From assembly GCF_030209745.1 (NCBI RefSeq), contig NZ_JARVRJ010000017.1:186001-250000 (forward strand): a stretch of DNA of 64,000 nucleotides, given 5' to 3'. Of this stretch, positions 19,142 through 29,335 are shown piece by piece. The translations under genes were made by a program, and so were the position numbers. Every line of letters begins with the position of its first letter. The stretch's first letter is position 1. Below the pieces are notes generated by a model. That model worked only from the letters and a program-made list of their open reading frames with translations. It did not search any database and was not told the origin of the DNA. Source of the stretch: Arthrobacter sp. fls2-241-R2A-200. GTDB taxonomy: Bacteria; Actinomycetota; Actinomycetes; Actinomycetales; Micrococcaceae.

Positions 19142-20665
19142 ATGACCGTTTACGCCCGGCCAGGTGCCGAGGGTTCGAAGGTTACCTTCAAGGACCGGTA
19201 CGAGAACTGGATTGGCGGCGAGTGGGTTGCCCCGGTCAAGGGCGCCTACTTTGAGAACATCACCCCGGTGACAGGCAAGGCTTTCTGCGAGGTTGCCCGC
19301 GGAACGTCCGAGGACATCGAACTGGCCCTGGACGCCGCCCACAAAGTTGCGCCTTCTTGGGGGAAGACGTCGGCCACCGAACGCGCGGCCATTCTCAACA
19401 AGATTGCCGACCGTATCGACGAGAACGTGGAGATGCTCGCCGTTGCGGAAACGTGGGACAACGGCAAGCCCATCCGTGAAACGCTCAATGCCGACATCCC
19501 CTTGGCCGCCGACCACTTCCGCTACTTCGCCGCAGCCGTTCGTGCCCAGGAAGGCCACCTTTCCCAGCTCGACGAGGACACCACGGCGTACCACTTCAAG
19601 GAACCCTTGGGCGTGGTGGGCCAGATCATTCCGTGGAACTTTCCCATCCTCATGGCTGTGTGGAAGCTGGCTCCGGCCCTGGCAGCCGGCAACGCGGTGG
19701 TGCTCAAGCCGGCCGAGCAGACGCCGTCGTCCATCCTGGTCCTGATGGAACTGATCAGCGATCTTCTGCCTGCGGGCGTGGTGAACGTCGTCAATGGCTT
19801 CGGGGTTGAAGCCGGAAAGCCGTTGGCTTCCAGCCCGCGCATCCGCAAGATCGCTTTCACGGGCGAGACCACTACAGGCCGCCTCATCAGCCAATATGCA
19901 TCCAACAACCTCATTCCTGTCACCTTGGAACTGGGCGGTAAGAGCCCCAACATCTTCTTTGACGACGTCGCAGCCCGGGACGATGCCTTCTACGACAAAG
20001 CCCAGGAAGGCTTCACGCTCTTCGCCTTCAACCAAGGTGAGGTGTGCACCTGCCCCTCCCGCGCGCTGGTCCAAGAGGGAATTTACGATTCGTTCATGGC
20101 CGACGTCATCGCCCGGACGCAGAAAATCATCCAAGGCAACCCGCTGGACACTGACACGCAGGTGGGTGCCCAGGCGTCCAACGACCAGCTCGAGAAGATC
20201 CTCTCCTACATCGACATCGGAAAGCAGGAAGGCGCCAAGATCCTCACAGGCGGCGCGCGGGCCGAACTCTCCGGTGAACTGGGCGAGGGCTACTACGTCC
20301 AGCCCACCATCTTCGAAGGCCACAACCGGATGCGCATCTTCCAGGAAGAGATTTTTGGTCCGGTGGTGTCCGTTACTAAATTCAGCGATTACAACGACGC
20401 CATCGGTATCGCCAACGACACCCTGTACGGGCTTGGCGCAGGTGTTTGGTCGCGCGACGGAAACGTCGCTTACAGGGCCGGACGGGAAATCCAGGCCGGC
20501 CGCGTGTGGATCAACAACGACCACGCCTACCCGGCCGGCGCTGCCTTCGGCGGATACAAATCCTCGGGCATCGGCCGTGAAAACCACGCCATGATGCTGG
20601 ACCACTACCAGCAGACCAAGAACCTCCTGGTCAGCTACAACGAGAACAAGCTCGGCTTCTTCTAG
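19142..20665 (+). CDS. NAD-dependent aldehyde dehydrogenase (acetaldehyde-type, ExaC/AldB-like)
   Basis: Oxidises an aliphatic aldehyde, probably acetaldehyde or a similar short one, to the acid. The 507 residues have the catalytic cysteine C302 in [16 protein letters not shown] and the base E263 in [32 protein letters not shown] is the cofactor segment. The C-T-C around the active site is typical of the ExaC/AldB subgroup. Start ATG follows AAAGGAG at about 6 bp. Placed between a GAF regulator and a DUF779 gene, a recurrent trio in actinobacteria and proteobacteria as I recall. Confidence 0.92.
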
Positions 20666-20691
20666 GAGTCGGTCACCAGGGAAGGTTCACC

Positions 20692-21108
20692 ATGAACAAC
20701 CCCAGCCTGGACGCTGCGGTGACGTTGCCCGGGGAGGATTTCTCCCGGGTGGCGCTCACCGCGGCGGCCGTGGAGCTCCTGCGTAAACTGTGGCTCCAGC
20801 ACGGGCCACTGATGTTCCATCAGTCCGGGGGCTGTTGCGACGGCTCGTCCCCGATGTGCTTTCCCGCCGGGGAATTCCTGACCGGGGACTCCGATGTCCT
20901 CCTCGGAAGGTTCGACGTCGGATCGGTTCAGGAACCGCAGCCGCTGGAATTCTGGATGTCCAAGGAACAATTCGCCTATTGGTCGCACACCCACCTCACC
21001 GTGGACGTGGTCCCTGGCAGGGGAAGCGGGTTTTCGGTGGAAGCCCCCGAGGGCAAACGGTTCCTCATCAGGTCTACCCTGATGGATTGGAAAGTCCCGG
21101 GGATGTGA
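20692..21108 (+). CDS. DUF779 family protein
   Basis: Small protein of 138 residues whose function is not established. The motif HQSGGCCDGSSPMC, with two adjacent cysteines and a third nearby, is the family signature and looks suited to metal or thiol chemistry. Family members are regularly found next to acetaldehyde-type aldehyde dehydrogenases, as here (26 bp downstream). AAGG at about 8 bp before the ATG. No signal peptide or membrane segment, so cytoplasmic. A role as accessory or activating factor of the dehydrogenase is inference. Confidence 0.85.
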   Translation: MNNPSLDAAVTLPGEDFSRVALTAAAVELLRKLWLQHGPLMFHQSGGCCDGSSPMCFPAGEFLTGDSDVLLGRFDVGSVQEPQPLEFWMSKEQFAYWSHTHLTVDVVPGRGSGFSVEAPEGKRFLIRSTLMDWKVPGM

Positions 21109-21255
21109 CGAGGGGCCGTGACGTGCAACCGTGAGTCGGCTATTGGGTATCGGCTATCCGGGCGTCTCAGTATCTGGAATAACTGGGGCCGTCCATTGGC
21201 CGGACACTATTCTTGATGAGTCCATTACCAGCCTCCTCCAGAATGTGGCACCTTC

Positions 21256-22812
21256 ATGAACATTTTCAGGACCAAGTCGATCGAGCAATCGATCGCCGAC
21301 GCCGATGAGCCCGGGCGTAAGCTCAAGCGCAGCCTCAGTACCTGGGACTTGATGATTATGGGCGTGGCCGTTGCGGTTGGCGCCGGGATCTTCTCCGTTG
21401 GGGCCAAAGCCGCAGCGAACTTTGCCGGTCCGGCCGTCACGATCTCCTTTGCCATCGCTGCTGTTACGTGTGCCCTGGCCATCATGTGTTACGCGGAATT
21501 CGCCACGGCGATCCCAGTGGCCGGGTCGGCGTACGTGTTCACCTACGCCACCATGGGTGAGGTGCTCGCGTGGATCATCGGCTGGAACCTCATCCTGGAA
21601 CTGTTTACCGCCGCGGCAGTGATCGCCAAATATTGGGGGATCTACCTCAGCAAGGTTTTTGCCTTGATGGGTGTTGACGTTCCGCCGGCGTTGAACGTCG
21701 GCGGCGTCGACCTCTACTGGGGTGCGTTCCTCATCGTCGCAATCTTTACCGTCTTGCTGGTCCTGGGGACTAAGTTGTCCGCACGCGTGGGCAATGTCTT
21801 CACGATCATCAAGATCGCCGTGGTGCTCTTTGTGATCATCGTGGGTTTCAGCTACGTCAAGTTCTCCAACTTCACGCCCTTCGTTCCCGCCTCCCAGCCG
21901 ACCGCCGGAGCTGGTGCAGGCGACGTGATGAAGCAGTCCTTCTTTGGTTTCCTCACTGGTGCGGTCCCGGCCCAATACGGAACCTTAGGCATCTTTGCTG
22001 GTGCTGCGCTGGTGTTCTTCGCGTTCATCGGCTTCGACGTCGTGGCCACTTCCGCCGAGGAAGTCAAGAATCCGCAGAAGACCTTGCCGCGAGGGATCTT
22101 CAGCGGCTTGGCTGTGGTCACCCTGCTCTACATTCTGGTCTCACTTGCCCTCACCGGCATGGTTTCCTACGCCCAGCTGGCCCAGGAAAAGAACCCCACC
22201 CTGACTACGGCATTCGAGGCCGTAGGTAACACCGATGCGGCCAAGGTCATCGCTTTTGGTTCGTTGATCGGCCTGACCACGGTGATCATGGTGCTTCTCA
22301 TGGGCCTCTCACGTGTTGTCCTGGCAATGAGCCGGGACGGATTGTTGCCCCGCGCCCTTTCGAAGACCAGCGCCAAACGATCCACCCCCGCACGCCTGCA
22401 AATCATTTGCGGCGGTGCCGTTGCCTTGGTGGCCGGGCTGACGAACGTGGATCTGTTGGAAGAAATGATCAACATCGGGACACTGTCTGCGTTCGTGATG
22501 GTCAGCCTTGGCATCCTTGTCCTCCGCAAAAAGCGTCCCGACCTCAAGCCCGCGTTCAGGGTTCCCTTGGGTAAGGTGCTCCCTTGGGTTTCTGCGGTCC
22601 TGTGCGTGTACCTGATGACCAACCTCGCCGTAGAGACGTGGATCTTCTTCGCTATCTGGTTGGTCATTGGCATCGTCATCTACTTCTCCTACGGACAACG
22701 CCATTCGCGGCTCAATGAGAAGTTCGCCTCTGCGAAGGCCGCCGTCAACACCCCTGCGGGCGAGGACGAAACACACCGCGGAACGTCGGAAGGCAGCTAT
22801 ACCAAGGTCTGA
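21256..22812 (+). CDS. APC-family amino-acid permease (cationic amino-acid transporter type)
   Basis: Membrane transporter of 518 residues with 12 or more hydrophobic segments. The N-terminal SLSTWDLMIMGVAVAVGAGI, AGPAVTISFAIAAVTCALA, FAFIGFDVVATSAEEVKNPQ and SRVVLAMSRDGLLPR fit the YfnA/CAT group of amino-acid transporters. The ATG at 21256 has no strong ribosome site, but the MNIFRTKS start is common in this group. The hydrophilic tail of ~40 residues is cytoplasmic. Followed by a hairpin terminator. Substrate not determinable. Confidence 0.9.
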   Translation: MNIFRTKSIEQSIADADEPGRKLKRSLSTWDLMIMGVAVAVGAGIFSVGAKAAANFAGPAVTISFAIAAVTCALAIMCYAEFATAIPVAGSAYVFTYATMGEVLAWIIGWNLILELFTAAAVIAKYWGIYLSKVFALMGVDVPPALNVGGVDLYWGAFLIVAIFTVLLVLGTKLSARVGNVFTIIKIAVVLFVIIVGFSYVKFSNFTPFVPASQPTAGAGAGDVMKQSFFGFLTGAVPAQYGTLGIFAGAALVFFAFIGFDVVATSAEEVKNPQKTLPRGIFSGLAVVTLLYILVSLALTGMVSYAQLAQEKNPTLTTAFEAVGNTDAAKVIAFGSLIGLTTVIMVLLMGLSRVVLAMSRDGLLPRALSKTSAKRSTPARLQIICGGAVALVAGLTNVDLLEEMINIGTLSAFVMVSLGILVLRKKRPDLKPAFRVPLGKVLPWVSAVLCVYLMTNLAVETWIFFAIWLVIGIVIYFSYGQRHSRLNEKFASAKAAVNTPAGEDETHRGTSEGSYTKV

Positions 22813-22860
22813 CATTGGCAGGGCTGTCTTGTCAGACAGCTGACTGGTATGTGCCCCATG

Positions 22861-22891
22861 GAGCGCCCGGAGAGAATGGTTCCGGGCGCTC
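22861..22891 (+). terminator. Terminator hairpin after the permease
   Basis: GAGCGCCCGGA (22861-22871), 9-bp loop, TCCGGGCGCTC (22881-22891), followed by a short TTGTG. Perfect 11-bp stem, weak U-tract. The GAF-ANTAR gene converges from the other side. Confidence 0.75.
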
Positions 22892-22932
22892 TTGTGTCGG
22901 TGCTGCCACGTGGCCGTGGCGGGTCCCGATCT

Positions 22933-23655
22933 TCAAGGTTGGTAGAAGCGCCGTCCTCCCGGGAACCCCGCAATGATGTCTTCGGCAACACTCTGAAGTT
23001 TTTGGTGGTTACTCCGGGATCTCCCGAGGAGTACCGACCGGGCCTCGGCGCGAGTGCAATTGTTTCGGGACATGATCATCCGGCTGGCGAGTTCGATAGG
23101 TGCCTGCCGGGCCAAGGCGGCGTACAGGTCCTTGTCATTCCCGCCAGAGGTCGGCATGCGAAGGGTGAGGCGTAGTGCTGGGCCCGCGCTCTCGGCAAAC
23201 CCGGTTGCGTCCCTGATAGCCTGCCCTGTGAAGACCCCTGTCCTGTCGGCGAAGAAGTGCAGAGCTGCGGACGCGTCTTTCCCAACACCCAAGGGAACGA
23301 TTAAGACGTTCCGAATGTGGGCGGAGGCAAGGCTTTTGGTGTAGTCCGGCCAACGCTGGTCCAGGCTCGTGTCGGCAATAACGATGAGGCGGGACGTTTC
23401 CGTGGCTTCCAGGGCGGGCCCGTTACCCCACACGTATGCCAGCCCTCCCTGCCAGAGTGCGTCGTTGCTGCTTCCGACAATACTTACAGGACCCCCGGGC
23501 CGCCACAGAATCAGGGCGCACTGTACTGGCGCGCCTGTGGCTCGGCTCATCAGTGTGGCCGCATAGCGTGTCATTCCGTCAAGGAAGCTTCTGACGTCCT
23601 CGCTGCCGGCTATGAGCTGGCGAAGACGTTGCTGGTCCTCTTCGCGATCACCCAC
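22933..23655 (-). CDS. GAF-ANTAR domain regulator (intact copy)
   Basis: Probable RNA-binding antiterminator with a GAF sensor. From the GTG at 23655 it has 240 residues. A GAF-like region holds the middle (VQCALILWRPGGPVSIVGSS, RNVLIVPLGVGKDASAALHF). The C-terminal ~60 residues form an ANTAR domain: LARQAPIELASRMIMSRNNCTRAEARSVLL, helical as in AmiR/NasR proteins. The upstream reading to 23919 is unlikely to be translated, because it lacks family similarity and a start signal. It is the last of three genes on this strand and resembles the product of 24103-24820. Confidence 0.78.
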   Translation of the reverse strand: MGDREEDQQRLRQLIAGSEDVRSFLDGMTRYAATLMSRATGAPVQCALILWRPGGPVSIVGSSNDALWQGGLAYVWGNGPALEATETSRLIVIADTSLDQRWPDYTKSLASAHIRNVLIVPLGVGKDASAALHFFADRTGVFTGQAIRDATGFAESAGPALRLTLRMPTSGGNDKDLYAALARQAPIELASRMIMSRNNCTRAEARSVLLGRSRSNHQKLQSVAEDIIAGFPGGRRFYQP

Positions 23656-23791
23656 ATTTCCATCATAGGAGCAGACGCTCAAGGATCGAAGGGCTCCCTG
23701 TAAGGAAGGGACCCCTGCAAGGCAGGGACGCCTGTAAAGGTTTGCGCTGCTCGGAAGCACGCGGGACGGGCCGCCTTCCGGAGCCCGGGTT

Positions 23792-24094
23792 TCATGAGGG
23801 GTTTTCGCTTGATGAATTTTGCTCTTGGTGCGTCTCGGGAGGTTTACCGCTGTAGGGCGCCATCCGCCGCGGTGGGAGCTCTTTGATGAGTTCATTGACC
23901 GCGTGGGAGATGAGGTCACGTTCGTGGGCGGGCAGCTCTAATGATCCGTTGAGGTAGGCGTCGATTTCGTACTCGCCGGCTTCTCCAGTGAAGCTGAAGT
24001 ACCGCATCCAGACAGCGTTGAGCCGGAGACCGGCTTCTTCCATAGCCCGGCGGGTTGCTGGTGCTTGTCCGTTTGGTTCATCGAACGACTCCAC
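23792..24094 (-). CDS. Conserved small protein of unknown function in the GAF-ANTAR cluster
   Basis: 100 residues, not recognised. A GTG start at 24094 has AGGAG 5 bp upstream and begins 8 bp after the stop of the upstream GAF-ANTAR gene, so translation is probably coupled. The sequence is soluble: a helical start (RRAMEEAGLRLNAVWMRYF), an acidic centre with YEIDAYLNGSLELP, and helix RDLISHAVNELIKEL. The tail is polar and probably disordered. Being embedded between two GAF-ANTAR genes suggests a linked role, perhaps a partner or input protein. This is inference only. Confidence 0.7.
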   Translation of the reverse strand: MESFDEPNGQAPATRRAMEEAGLRLNAVWMRYFSFTGEAGEYEIDAYLNGSLELPAHERDLISHAVNELIKELPPRRMAPYSGKPPETHQEQNSSSENPS

Positions 24095-24102
24095 AGGTTC
24101 TC

Positions 24103-24820
24103 CTACTGGTTGGTCATTCCGTTGACGATCTCCCGGGCTATCTCGTGCAAGGGCTTGTCTCCGCCTTTGGAGGCGGAGAGCATGACGGTCAGGGTTTCCC
24201 TGGCCGTGAGCTTCATCCGTTCCATGAGCACACCCTGAGCCCGCGAGATCAAGTCGCGGTTGGACAAGGCTTCTACCAGTTGTGAGCTCATCCGCTCCGT
24301 GGCTTCCCTGTCCCGGGCGTTGCCGAGCATCACAGCCGCGGGGGTGGCGAGCCGTTCGATGAGGAATACCGAGTGATCATCGAAGGCGTTGGGAGCCGAC
24401 GAGTAGACCTTGATCGCACCAATGCGCCTTCCTTCGGTTGTCAGCGGGGCGCTGAGCACGGACCGCAGCGGAAGACCGGTGATCCGGGCCGTCCACTCCG
24501 GCCAGCGGGTCTCCCTCGTGATGTCCTGGATGAGGATAGGGCGTTGCTCTGCCCACGCGCTCAGGCATGGGCCTATCCCGAGCATGTACTGAAGCTTGTC
24601 GGCCTGTAGTACTACCGAGTCCGTTGCGCCTGCGCTTTCACGGCGTCCGCGGGCGTTGATGATTGACGCGCCAGCACCTGTTGCGCTGGGGTACCGAGTC
24701 CTTGAGGACGTACGCGAGGGATTGCACGGCTTTAGCGGCGTTCTCCTCCGTGAGGGAACCACCTGCTGCTGGTCCTGCCAAGGCAGTAAGTTCACTTGCC
24801 AGTGGAAGGAAATCGTTCAT
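24103..24820 (-). pseudogene. GAF-ANTAR domain regulator with an apparent frameshift
   Basis: The N-terminal part starts at ATG 24820 (NDFLPLASELTALAG ... SLAYVLKDSVP) in one frame. The remainder (SATGAGASIINARGRRESAG ... GAF region ... ANTAR helices ERMSSQLVEALSNRDLISRA, QGVLMERMKLTARE) lies in another frame. The frames join at a run of four G (24688-24691, CCCC on the coding strand). With one base fewer the gene would read through as 238 residues, close to its 240-residue paralogue. Either a true inactivating or programmed frameshift, or a sequencing error in a homopolymer. Everything outside the run looks conserved, so decay would be recent. Confidence 0.75.
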
Positions 24821-25187
24821 TGCTTTCTCGCCTCTATAGTGCCAAGGACTGCCCTGGCTGCCGCGGAACCTGATGACCTGACGTGCTGCAGCCACCCGAA
24901 GCGGCCCTCGTGTGTGCCTGTTCTACCCAAAAATAGAAAAGACAAACATCCACGACAGCCCGCGCGATTGCTGCGCCCGAGTTGATTTCGGTCAACCGTC
25001 CGCAGAGTCACGCAGAGCATGCGCCTACAGGTCCCACTTACGATCCTAGTCCTGGCCCGCACCGATGGATCCTCCATCACCGAGCGATCGCACATCGCTG
25101 ACACATTGGGATCAGAATCACGGTCTTAGAACCGCCACGATCTTTAGACCCACAGTCTTTCTGACCCACAGTCTTGCTGGCTGTCCG
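24821..25187. other. Intergenic region without a supported gene
   Basis: 367 bp between two genes on the minus strand. Open frames here lack ribosome sites and recognisable sequence. An AT-rich patch at 24925-24950 may be the promoter of the GAF-ANTAR cluster. A 16-bp tandem duplication lies at 25147-25178. Confidence 0.5.
25147..25178. repeat. 16-bp tandem duplication after the DUF2461 gene
   Basis: GACCCACAGTCTTTCT (25147-25162) followed by GACCCACAGTCTTGCT (25163-25178), one mismatch, 10 bp beyond the stop of the DUF2461 gene. Confidence 0.85.
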
Positions 25188-25823
25188 TCACGGTGCGGCA
25201 TGAACGCTGACCCATTGCACCAAGGGCTTGAGCGCTTCCCAACGAGCGGCGACGTGTTCCACCGCAGCGTCCGTCGAGACCCAGGCAGGCTCTCCCAGAT
25301 GCTCTCGGGCAGATAGCGTCTTATGTTTGAGCAGCTCACCCCGGGGGTGGTCTTTGTCGAAACCGCGGGGAACGGTTTTGAGTTTTTCGCCCTCGACGGT
25401 AAACCCGGCGGAGGTCACGGAGTCCATGATGCGCTCCAACTCCAAGCCGCTGTCCGGAGCGTCAACTGCAGCCCTGAAGCGCGCCAGTTGGGCTGGTGTG
25501 TGGGAATGGTATCCGCCGCCCACCAACAGACCGTCAGCGCTGACTTGGAGGTAATAGCCCACGCCCTCCTGGATCGCAGCGAAAGCTCCCTGGGCCGTCT
25601 TGTACGGAGACTTGTCCTGCGAGAACCTGACGTCCCTATTGGGACGGAAAATTTTGGCTGGCCCGAACTCCGGCTCCAACTCCGCAAGAAGAGCTGCCAG
25701 CGGACCCCGCACGCAGTCGTCGTACGTCTTTTTGTGTTCCAACCACCACTCGCGGTTGTTGTTCTCTTCAAGCTCGGCGTAGAAGCGGAATGCAGCGGTG
25801 GGGATGCCCTCGAATGTGCTCAT
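25188..25823 (-). CDS. DUF2461 family protein
   Basis: 211 residues matching the TIGR02453/DUF2461 family, whose biochemical role is not established. Recognisable segments are FRFYAELEENNNREWWLEHK near the N-terminus, FRPNRDVRFSQDKSPYKTA, YYLQVSADGLLVGGGYH and the C-terminal half with FTVEGEKLKTVPRGFDKDHP. Length is normal for the family. No signal peptide or membrane segment. It lies alone downstream of katA behind a terminator. Confidence 0.9.
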   Translation of the reverse strand: MSTFEGIPTAAFRFYAELEENNNREWWLEHKKTYDDCVRGPLAALLAELEPEFGPAKIFRPNRDVRFSQDKSPYKTAQGAFAAIQEGVGYYLQVSADGLLVGGGYHSHTPAQLARFRAAVDAPDSGLELERIMDSVTSAGFTVEGEKLKTVPRGFDKDHPRGELLKHKTLSAREHLGEPAWVSTDAAVEHVAARWEALKPLVQWVSVHAAP

Positions 25824-25880
25824 GAGAAGATCCTATGGATCGGGGCCGAGCGACAACCATAGGCCGCTAAGGCTATGTGG

Positions 25881-25928
25881 AAAAAGAAAAGGGACACCCC
25901 GCCACGGAGATCCGTGACGGGGTGTCCC
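25881..25928 (-). terminator. Rho-independent terminator of katA
   Basis: On the minus strand GGGACACCCCG and CGGGGTGTCCC form an 11-bp stem, extended inside by CACGGA/TCCGTG after one mismatch, then TTTTCTTTTT (25881-25890). Strong terminator directly after the catalase gene. Confidence 0.95.
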
Positions 25929-25943
25929 AAGAAGCCGTAGAGC

Positions 25944-27440
25944 TTAGAGCTTGTTGGCTGCTTCAGCGTCTGACGTGGTCTGGCCGGCACCGAGGTTGGC
26001 GCGCAGCTTGGCACCGAGTTCGGCGTCGACGTTGGTCCAGTACTGGATAGCGCGTTCCTTGATAACGGCGCTCTTCACGCCACCGACGGCACCGGTGATC
26101 GTGTCGAGGAAGCGGGCCTTGGCAGCTTCATCGTAGACCTCGCGGTACAAGGTTCCGGCCTGGCCGAAGTCGTCGTCCTCAGCGTGCAGGGTGTGAGCGG
26201 AGAGGGTCAGTTCTCCATCATTCTCCCAGCCACCGGCGGGGGAGAGGGGCTCCACCGCTGCAGGTCCACCGACTGAGTTCGGTGCGTACACCGGAGTGGT
26301 GGGAGCGTTGAACAGGTAGCGTCCCTGGCCGTCCTGGCTGTAGTTGTGCACAGCGTTCTTTGGCTGGTTCACCGGGATCTGTGCGTGGTTGGTGCCCACG
26401 CGGTAACGGTGCGCGTCCGCGTAGGAGAAGATGCGGGCCTGCAGCATCTTGTCCGGTGAAGCCGCGATCCCCGGGACGAAGTTCGACGGCGCGAAGGTGG
26501 CCTGCTCGATCTGCGCGAAGTAGTTCTCCGGGTTCTTGTTCAGTTCCATGGTGCCCACGTGGATCAGCGGGTAGTCCGAGTGCGGCCACACCTTGGTGAG
26601 GTCGAACGGGTTGAAGCGGTACGTCTTGGCGTCCTCATACGGCATCACCTGGACGTGCAGTTCCCACGAGGGGAAGTTGCCGGCGTCGATGTTTTCCTGA
26701 AGGTCGCGGATGTAGAAGTCTGCATCCGAGCCGGCAAGTGCTTCTGCCTGGTCTCCGGTCATGGAGTCCACGCCCTGGTTGGACTTGAAGTGGTACTTGA
26801 CCCAGAAACGCTCGCCGGCCGCGTTGATCCACTGGTAAGTGTGCGAGCCGTAGCCCTGCATTTCACGCCAGGAAGCCGGAAGGCCGCGGTCACCCATGAG
26901 CCAGGTCACCTGGTGCGCCGACTCCGGGGAGAGCGTCCAGAAGTCCCACTGCATATCGGCGTCGCGCAGGTGGCTGCCCGGGAGGCGCTTCTGGGAGTGG
27001 ATGAAGTCCGGGAACTTGATGCCGTCGCGGATGAAGAACACCGGGGTGTTGTTGCCGACGAGGTCGTAGTTGCCCTCTGAGGTGTAGAACTTCACCGCGA
27101 AACCGCGAGGGTCGCGCCACGTGTCCGGGGAGCCGTTTTCGCCTGCGACGGAGGAGAAACGGATCAGCATATCCGTCTCGACGCCGGGCTGCAGGAAGGC
27201 CGCCTTGGTGTATGCGGAAACGTCCGAGGTGGTTTTGAACGTGCCGAAAGCTCCGCCGCCCTTGGCGTGAACTACGCGCTCCGGGACCCGCTCGCGGTTG
27301 AACTGGGCGAGCTTTTCCACAAGGTAGTGGTCAGTCAGGATGATGGCACCGTCAGCGCCGACGGACTTCGAGTGAGCGTCCGAGGTGACGGGGGCACCGG
27401 ACTGGGTGGTCGACTGAACGGGCGTGATATTCGCGGTCAT
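25944..27440 (-). CDS. katA: Monofunctional heme catalase
   Basis: Decomposes hydrogen peroxide in the cytoplasm. The 498 residues are a full small-subunit clade catalase. The active-site region reads [20 protein letters not shown] (catalytic His), [20 protein letters not shown], and [20 protein letters not shown]. The proximal tyrosine motif is [14 protein letters not shown]. The ATG at 27440 follows AAAGGAG by about 5 bp. The Fur-family regulator gene lies 25 bp upstream on the same strand, so the pair is an operon responding to peroxide. Confidence 0.97.
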
Positions 27441-27465
27441 CGTTCTCCTTTTTTCTATTTCTTGG

Positions 27466-27933
27466 TTACGTGAGGTTTACGGGAAGCTGTTGTTTGGACT
27501 GGCAGTCCTGGCAGATGCCTTGGTAGAGGACATCTGCGATCCGGATGGTCATGGGCTTGGAGTTCCCACTCCAATGCGGCGTGAGGCACGGTGCGTGCCC
27601 CACCGCGCAATCGACGTCTTCAACACGGCCGCAACTGGTACAGACGGCGTGGTGGTGGTTGTCGCCCACGCGGGTTTCATAGAGTGCGGGGGAGTGCGGT
27701 GGCTCGAACCGGCGCAGCATCTCAAGGTCAGTCAGGTCGCTGAGGACCACATAGACGGACTGGGCCGTTAGTTCGGGAAGCTCCTGGCGGGCGGCCGCGA
27801 GTATTCCTTCGGCGGGAGAGTGCGGGTGGTGCTGGACTGCTGCAAGCACAGCCAGGCGCTGTTTGGTGACTCGCCGGCCGTGGGCACGCAGCTCAGCGGC
27901 CCATGTTTCCTGTTCGGCTGTGAGTGCGGTCAT
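27466..27933 (-). CDS. Fur-family regulator (PerR/CatR-like) of catalase
   Basis: Metal-dependent repressor of 155 residues. The winged helix is at residues ~15-75 ([39 protein letters not shown]). The metal site region has [19 protein letters not shown], and a second CxxC (CQDC) near the C-terminus forms a structural zinc site. Together with katA directly downstream this is the classic peroxide-sensing furA/catR-katA arrangement, where oxidation of the regulator derepresses catalase. A probable operator overlaps its promoter (27950-27972). Confidence 0.93.
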
Positions 27934-27949
27934 GCATTCATTGAAACAC

Positions 27950-27972
27950 TTATTATTAGGAGTTCACAATAA
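27950..27972. promoter_or_regulatory. Probable Fur/Per-type operator of the fur-katA operon
   Basis: An AT-rich imperfect palindrome, TTATT at 27950-27954 and AATAA at 27968-27972 around ATTAGGAGTTCAC, 17 bp upstream of the regulator's start codon. Composition resembles Per/CatR boxes and contrasts with the surrounding GC-rich sequence. Confidence 0.55.
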
Positions 27973-28063
27973 GGCGTGGCTAACTTAGCGTGAACAAAGC
28001 AAAACCTTCCGTAACCTGCCCGTCTTGCGGCCCGGGCTGGTGCGCGCTGCTTAGGCTTACACG

Positions 28064-29335
28064 GTGGCAAAACTATTGGCGGACATCACCCCCCTCAAGG
28101 AGAGTCCCGCATTTCGACGACTGTGGCTGGGGGCGTCCATAGCCGCCGTCGGTTCCCAACTCACTTTGGTGGCTGTCAGTTTGGAGGTCTACCGGCTGAC
28201 CCAACAGAGCCTCTATGTCGGCTTGCTCGGCATCTTCGCCTTGGTGCCCCTCGTCGTTGCGGGGCTATATGGCGGATCAGTGTCAGATGCTTACGACCGC
28301 CGGAAAGTTGCCCTGATTGCTTCCCTGGTCCTGTGGGCATCCACGGCAGGTTTGGCCCTGCAGGCATGGTTGCACTTAGGCAACATCTGGATCCTCTACG
28401 TGCTGGTAGCTATCCAGAGCGGCGCGCAGGGAATCAACGGACCCGCACGCAGCGCGATCATCCCGCTGTTGGTCCGCAAGGAATTGCTTCCAGCTGCAAA
28501 TGCACTGAACATGCTGACGTTCGGCCTTTCGATGACGGCCGGGCCATTGCTGGCAGGCGTACTGGTAGCGAGCATCGGCTTCGGCTGGACGTACACCATC
28601 GATGTCATCAGTTTCACTTTCGCGCTGTGGGGCCTTTTGGGGCTCCCGGCCATGCCGCCATCCCACGACGCCGCCCGGCCGGGACTTCGCTCAGTGGTGG
28701 AGGGATTCCGGTTCCTCGGCACACGCCCCAACGTCCGCATGACCTTCATCATCGACCTCATCGCCATGATCTTCGCCCAGCCGCGCGCTCTGATGCCGGC
28801 TATCGGAGCCGTGATGATCGGAGGCGGTGAAATCACAGTAGGGGTGCTCCTCGCGGCAACGGCGGTCGGCGCATTTCTCGCGGGCCTCTTCTCGGGACCG
28901 CTGGGACGGGTCCGACGGCAAGGGAGCGCAGTTGTGTGGTCCGTGATCGGCTGGGGTGGTTCAATCGCCGCCTTTGGCCTGGTGGTCCTCCTGGCCGGTG
29001 AATCAGGGCGTGGAGGCGTGACATCCTGGCTGATTCCCGCGGCTCTTTGCTGCGCGCTCGCCGGAATCGCGGATTCCGTCAGCGCCGTTTTCCGAACCAC
29101 CATTCTCCAGTCGGCCACCCCCGACCATCTCCGTGGGCGCCTGCAAGGTGTGTTCGTGGTGGTGGTTGCCGGTGGCCCACGCATCGGTGACCTGGTTGCC
29201 GGCGGGGTCACCCGATTCCTCAGCGAGGGTGGGGTGCTGCTCGCGGGAGGGATGGTCTGCATGGTCCTGGCCCTGCTGGCCGCGCGAATCCAGCCCGGGT
29301 TTGCGGCGTACGATGCCAAACACCCGACGCCGTAG
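28064..29335 (+). CDS. MFS transporter, EntS-like (MFS_3)
   Basis: Major facilitator of 423 residues with 10-12 membrane segments. PAFRRLWLGASIAAVGSQLT, the loop GGSVSDAYDRRKVALIASLV and the segment AIQSGAQGINGPARSAIIPLL fit the MFS_3 group containing the enterobactin exporter EntS. GTG start at 28064 without any ribosome site; TAGGCT lies 7 bp upstream, so the mRNA may be leaderless. Divergent from fur-katA. Siderophore export is possible but not shown. Confidence 0.85.
   Translation: MAKLLADITPLKESPAFRRLWLGASIAAVGSQLTLVAVSLEVYRLTQQSLYVGLLGIFALVPLVVAGLYGGSVSDAYDRRKVALIASLVLWASTAGLALQAWLHLGNIWILYVLVAIQSGAQGINGPARSAIIPLLVRKELLPAANALNMLTFGLSMTAGPLLAGVLVASIGFGWTYTIDVISFTFALWGLLGLPAMPPSHDAARPGLRSVVEGFRFLGTRPNVRMTFIIDLIAMIFAQPRALMPAIGAVMIGGGEITVGVLLAATAVGAFLAGLFSGPLGRVRRQGSAVVWSVIGWGGSIAAFGLVVLLAGESGRGGVTSWLIPAALCCALAGIADSVSAVFRTTILQSATPDHLRGRLQGVFVVVVAGGPRIGDLVAGGVTRFLSEGGVLLAGGMVCMVLALLAARIQPGFAAYDAKHPTP

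What the first reader, a model, noticed from the sequence alone, without database searches (positions are those of the whole stretch)
24103..24820. Frameshift in a GAF-ANTAR regulator at a GGGG run
The two parts of the gene lie in different frames and join exactly at four G (24688-24691). Removal of one base yields a 238-residue protein matching its paralogue in length. All other residues look conserved, so this is a recent mutation, a phase-variable homopolymer, or a sequencing error.
Basis: seen in the sequence. Interest (0 to 1): 0.6.

Follow-up and report, generated by a model that had tools for sequence, protein, structure and literature searches.

The report
Single-base frameshift in a GAF-ANTAR gene
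One extra base splits an otherwise normal bacterial regulator gene that is whole in related species, so this is most likely a recent, ordinary gene-breaking mutation, or a sequencing slip.

Summary
The frameshift is present in the sequence. The gene lies on the minus strand: the start at 24820 opens a frame that leaves the conserved protein after 44 residues and stops at 24638 (60 aa). Most of the GAF domain and the ANTAR domain lie in another frame, ending at 24103. The frames meet at GGGG 24688-24691. In the 15 homologous loci examined, from 11 other same-genus genomes, the gene reads in one frame with 236-238 residues; read through, the window copy has 238. Relatives have no repeat tract at the site, and runs of exactly four G or C are common (343 in the window), so phase variation has no support. 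No slippery site is conserved, so programmed frameshifting has none either. A codon model gives the window's branch normal constraint (omega 0.09 versus 0.11), so the change is recent or not real. Real mutation and sequencing error cannot be separated here: no reads are held and the nearest relative is 75% identical in DNA. Another one-base frameshift was confirmed against relatives elsewhere in the 464 kb surveyed. I judge a genuine recent loss of function somewhat more likely. This is ordinary, with low interest.

The parts
24638..24820 (-). N-terminal reading frame of the broken gene: 60 codons and a stop; residues 1-44 native, last 16 out of frame
24688..24691 (-). GGGG on + strand (CCCC in the gene), where the two frames meet
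   Evidence: compared with homologous loci
24103..24795 (-). C-terminal reading frame (230-aa ORF from a GTG; native from about residue 45 of the protein): most of the GAF domain and all of the ANTAR domain
23792..24094 (-). Small 100-aa ORF directly downstream; the same pairing is seen in 11 of 15 homologous loci
22933..23919 (-). Second GAF-ANTAR gene (paralogue), open in one frame

Best explanation
A single extra base at or beside a four-base C run (gene strand) has recently inactivated a GAF-ANTAR regulator gene in this strain. Translation leaves the frame after residue 44 and stops 16 codons later, before the matched part of the GAF domain and before the ANTAR RNA-binding domain, so no working regulator is made. 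Shown: the two frames, intact relatives, and normal constraint on this branch. Inferred: that the base is really in the chromosome, that function is lost, and that expression of the small downstream ORF may drop through polarity.
For: Two frames meet at the run. 15 of 15 homologous loci examined, in 11 genomes, read through in one frame, and the Sinomonas humi relative L024 aligns over residues 1-234 in one segment. Pfam GAF_2 starts at residue 60 and ANTAR at 180 of the read-through protein, so the truncated product has neither. The own-branch omega is 0.089 against 0.106 (LRT 0.46), and, with the other parameters held fixed, a final neutral phase of 0.1 branch units (constrained part then 2.46) lowers lnL by 2.1, so the event is recent. 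Nine strong frameshift signals appeared in 464 kb. On inspection I judged six to be ordinary gene junctions, one noise and two real-looking, which does not suggest an assembly full of indel errors.
Against: No reads and no second strain, so a one-base consensus error explains the sequence equally well. One further one-base indel beside a G run in the same assembly (L058) fits either a mutation-prone sequence or a systematic error. My detector found only 57 of 118 planted indels and missed the frameshift in question at every setting whose hits were listed (costs 10 to 18), so its count is a loose lower bound.
Confidence: 0.58

Rival explanations
1. Consensus error: the assembly has one base too many in a short homopolymer and the gene is whole in the organism.
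For: The read-through frame is under normal constraint with no second lesion. The assembly is a 27-contig draft. Another one-base frameshift beside a G run is present in a gene (L058) that reads in one frame in 6 of 7 relative loci found.
Against: A four-base run is short for most technologies (recalled). Strong frameshift signals are sparse in the surveyed 464 kb, though the detector's sensitivity was only 57 of 118. The genome is scored 99.99% complete.
Confidence: 0.35
2. Phase-variable switch: the run slips reversibly to turn the regulator on and off.
For: The change lies at a homopolymer and the rest of the gene is preserved.
Against: The run is only 4 long, one of 343 G/C runs of that length in 64 kb. 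None of the 14 relatives whose DNA was printed has a long tract at the site. Known contingency loci use much longer tracts (recalled).
Confidence: 0.03
3. Programmed +1 frameshift: ribosomes slip on the CCC C sequence and make the full protein from the two frames.
For: The sequence at the junction (GTA CCC CAG) has a run on which +1 slippage is conceivable (mechanism recalled). The read-through gene is constrained.
Against: 15 of 15 relatives examined need no shift, so there is no conserved recoding site. No Rfam family matched at E<=1 within 20000-29000.
Confidence: 0.02
4. The shorter 230-aa ORF from the GTG at 24795 is a working, re-started form.
For: It is open and keeps the ANTAR domain and most of the GAF domain.
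Against: Its first 36 or so residues are out of frame with the conserved N-terminus, and the start lies inside the normal gene; the 15 relatives read from the upstream start in one frame.
Confidence: 0.02

Closest known systems
GAF-ANTAR one-component regulators (Pfam PF13185/PF01590 + PF03861)
   Same: Domain order and length of the read-through protein; over the Pfam cut-offs; homologues in 11 other genomes of the genus.
   Different: The window copy is split into two frames by one base.
Ordinary frameshifted genes (pseudogenes by single-base indel; kind recalled)
   Same: One indel, no further lesion in the read-through frame, intact in relatives.
   Different: Nothing seen; sequencing error is not excluded.
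Homopolymer phase-variable contingency loci (e.g. tracts in M. tuberculosis, PMC11898584, passages seen)
   Same: An indel at a homopolymer.
   Different: Run of only 4, no long tract in relatives, no evidence of reversibility.

Membership tests
GAF-ANTAR regulator | GAF domain followed by a C-terminal ANTAR domain | tested here: met
   Read-through protein: GAF_2 55.2 bits (cut-off 28.6), ANTAR 40.5 bits (cut-off 27.3)
GAF-ANTAR regulator | Encoded in one open reading frame | tested here: not met
   Two frames in the window; one frame in 15 of 15 relatives examined
GAF-ANTAR regulator | Binds two-hairpin target RNA | not testable with these tools
   No Rfam match at E<=1 in 20000-29000, which is no test of binding
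Pseudogene by recent frameshift | Intact homologues and a disrupting indel | tested here: met
Pseudogene by recent frameshift | Indel present in the living strain | not testable with these tools
   No reads and no second strain held
Pseudogene by recent frameshift | Relaxed constraint since the lesion | tested here: inconclusive
   Own-branch omega 0.089 vs 0.106, LRT 0.46: no decay seen, as expected if very recent or an artefact
Phase-variable homopolymer locus | Long tract, length varying between relatives or cells | tested here: not met
   Run of 4; no long tract at the site in the 14 relatives printed; variation between cells not testable
Programmed ribosomal frameshift | Recoding site conserved in homologues | tested here: not met
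   15 of 15 relatives examined read in one frame

The most novel reading that the evidence does not exclude
The CCC C junction is a strain-specific low-level +1 slippage or short-run slippage switch that leaves the regulator expressed at a reduced level.
Probability: 0.04. Interest if true: 0.4.

Novelty: new member of a known kind. Interest (0 to 1): 0.08.

Why it matters
Mainly for annotation: the locus should be flagged as a frameshifted GAF-ANTAR gene of unverified status and not listed as a new short protein. If real, the strain has lost one of the eleven ANTAR-domain matches in its genome and possibly normal expression of the small partner ORF.

Tried and rejected
Closer relatives: a scan of genome contigs gave 5 loci at 50% protein identity or less. 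DNA searches of 59, 206 and 295 genomes (the sets overlap and include the window's own genome) gave no match of 100 bases or more above 75% DNA identity other than the window itself; three short pieces (about 37 to 63 bases, L020-L022) were 76-86% identical. Plasmid records gave only two short pieces.

Rows left out of the count of 15: six weak partial matches (L017-L022) and the four distant loci L025-L028 were not examined at the junction; L024 was looked at only by tblastn.

Decay of the gene: the 6 private changes at otherwise invariant columns (the other 15 sequences have 0 to 9 by the same count) and the altered YELGQGPC motif at first suggested relaxed constraint. The codon model showed a long branch with normal omega, so I dropped that idea. 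The tree is poorly supported near the window's sequence (support 29-55). In one search the window's branch was fitted with all parameters free, but the other tips with the remaining branches held fixed; all but the window's branch was held fixed.

Frameshift survey: a home-made hidden Markov detector over the window and 20 stretches (464 kb) gave 9 signals at the strict setting and 39 to 181 at looser ones, which I did not inspect one by one. On inspection of the 9, by eye, I judged six to be ordinary gene junctions (window 4507, L043, L048, L051, L052, L053), one noise (L040) and two real-looking (L056, L058). Only L058 was checked against relatives: 6 of the 7 loci found gave the one-frame reading and the seventh (L066) was not matched by my motif. 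The detector missed the frameshift in question.

Literature: five searches (ANTAR with Arthrobacter; ANTAR with frameshift and GAF; phase variation; GAF-ANTAR; sequencing errors) listed no paper that appeared to concern this locus. Three papers were seen as passages, the rest as listings. Structure prediction was not run.

Full report
What is there. The gene runs on the minus strand from ATG (first base 24820). Its first frame gives 60 residues with the stop ending at 24638; the second frame holds an ORF from 24795 to 24103. The frames meet at GGGG 24688-24691. Read through, the product has 238 residues with GAF_2 (residues 60-165) and ANTAR (180-232), both over the Pfam cut-offs. The truncated product keeps 44 native residues and neither of these matched stretches.

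Relatives. Among 206 same-genus genomes, the window's own included, 12 had a match at E<=1e-20. Without the window's own these are 11 genomes with 15 loci; four of the genomes hold two loci each. All 15 are open in a single frame of 236-238 residues across the site. The closest are 75% identical in DNA and 76% in protein. A wider draw of 295 family genomes added no new locus at the same threshold. The more distant Sinomonas humi locus L024 aligns over residues 1-234 in one segment. At the junction the 14 relatives whose DNA was printed carry ordinary codons with no long G/C tract and no shared slippery sequence. The window copy therefore has one base too many relative to the inferred ancestral frame; which base of the run is extra cannot be said.

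Is the run special? The window holds 343 G/C runs of length 4, 82 of 5 and 5 of 6. A run of four is no outlier, and it is far shorter than the tracts of known phase-variable loci (recalled). Of the tract paper PMC11898584 I saw passages only.

Age. On a codon tree of the 16 sequences the window's terminal branch is the longest. A two-ratio model gives omega 0.089 for it and 0.106 for the rest (likelihood ratio 0.46). A model with a final neutral phase, other parameters fixed, fits best with a phase of zero; a phase of 0.05 costs 0.9 lnL units and one of 0.1 costs 2.1, against a constrained length of about 2.5 to 2.9. The gene was thus kept by selection for nearly all of that branch. The 6 private changes at columns invariant in the others (I96L, A112R, P141S, A209T, R218K, E220G) and the YMLGIGPC form of a motif that reads YELGQGPC in 14 of 15 lean the other way, but the long branch can account for them. 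The lesion is recent or is not in the organism.

Assembly quality. The draft has 27 contigs and 99.99% completeness. In 464 kb (the window plus the 20 stretches) a coding-frame model flagged 9 places at its strict setting. By eye six were ordinary junctions, one was noise and two looked real. One, at L058:16260, in a gene that I take for an MFS transporter (name from my reading; no family search was run), is a one-base loss beside a short G run; 6 of the 7 relative loci found are in one frame, the seventh not being read by my motif. The other (L056:1623) was not checked against relatives. The detector recovered 57 of 118 planted indels and missed the frameshift under study at the settings listed. 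Frameshifts in this genome are thus few but not unique, which fits ordinary pseudogenes and fits a low consensus-error rate equally.

Neighbourhood. A 100-aa ORF starts 8 bases after the gene's stop. The same ORF follows the gene in 11 of the 15 relatives; the 4 without it (L015, L016, L023, L037) form one clade in the tree (support 100) and look like a paralogous type. It matches no Pfam family at 1e-3 and no NCBIfam model at 0.01. Loss of translation in the first gene could lower its expression by polarity (inference).

How it would work. Intact, ANTAR proteins bind two-hairpin RNAs and control termination or translation (PMC7496416 and PMC8164766, passages seen), with the GAF domain presumably sensing a signal (inference). 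Broken, no RNA-binding product is expected. I put 0.58 on a genuine recent null mutation, 0.35 on a consensus error, and the remainder on slippage, recoding or a restart.

Verdict. The phase-variation reading is not supported. The rest is an ordinary single-base frameshift whose reality needs reads. Interest is low.

Noticed in passing
23792-24094 (-): Uncharacterised 100-aa ORF tightly linked downstream of this GAF-ANTAR gene in 11 of 15 relatives and also next to the Sinomonas humi relative L024; no Pfam or NCBIfam match at the limits used. Possibly a conserved partner of the regulator.
   Followed up: partly
L058:16260 (G000 contig C6): Another one-base frameshift beside a G run, in a probable MFS transporter (name from my reading) that reads in one frame in 6 of 7 relative loci found.
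   Followed up: partly
L056:1623 (G000 contig C5): Probable frameshift near the start of a long putative surface protein (name from my reading), seen by coding signal only.
   Followed up: no
L011 (G000 contig C13, about 1038-1769): A copy 88% identical over 244 residues to the window's second GAF-ANTAR protein (22933-23919) lies near the end of a 20.6-kb contig.
   Followed up: no
L015 and L016: Two intact GAF-ANTAR genes of the paralogous type show raised omega on their terminal branches (0.58 and 0.78, other branches held fixed).
   Followed up: no
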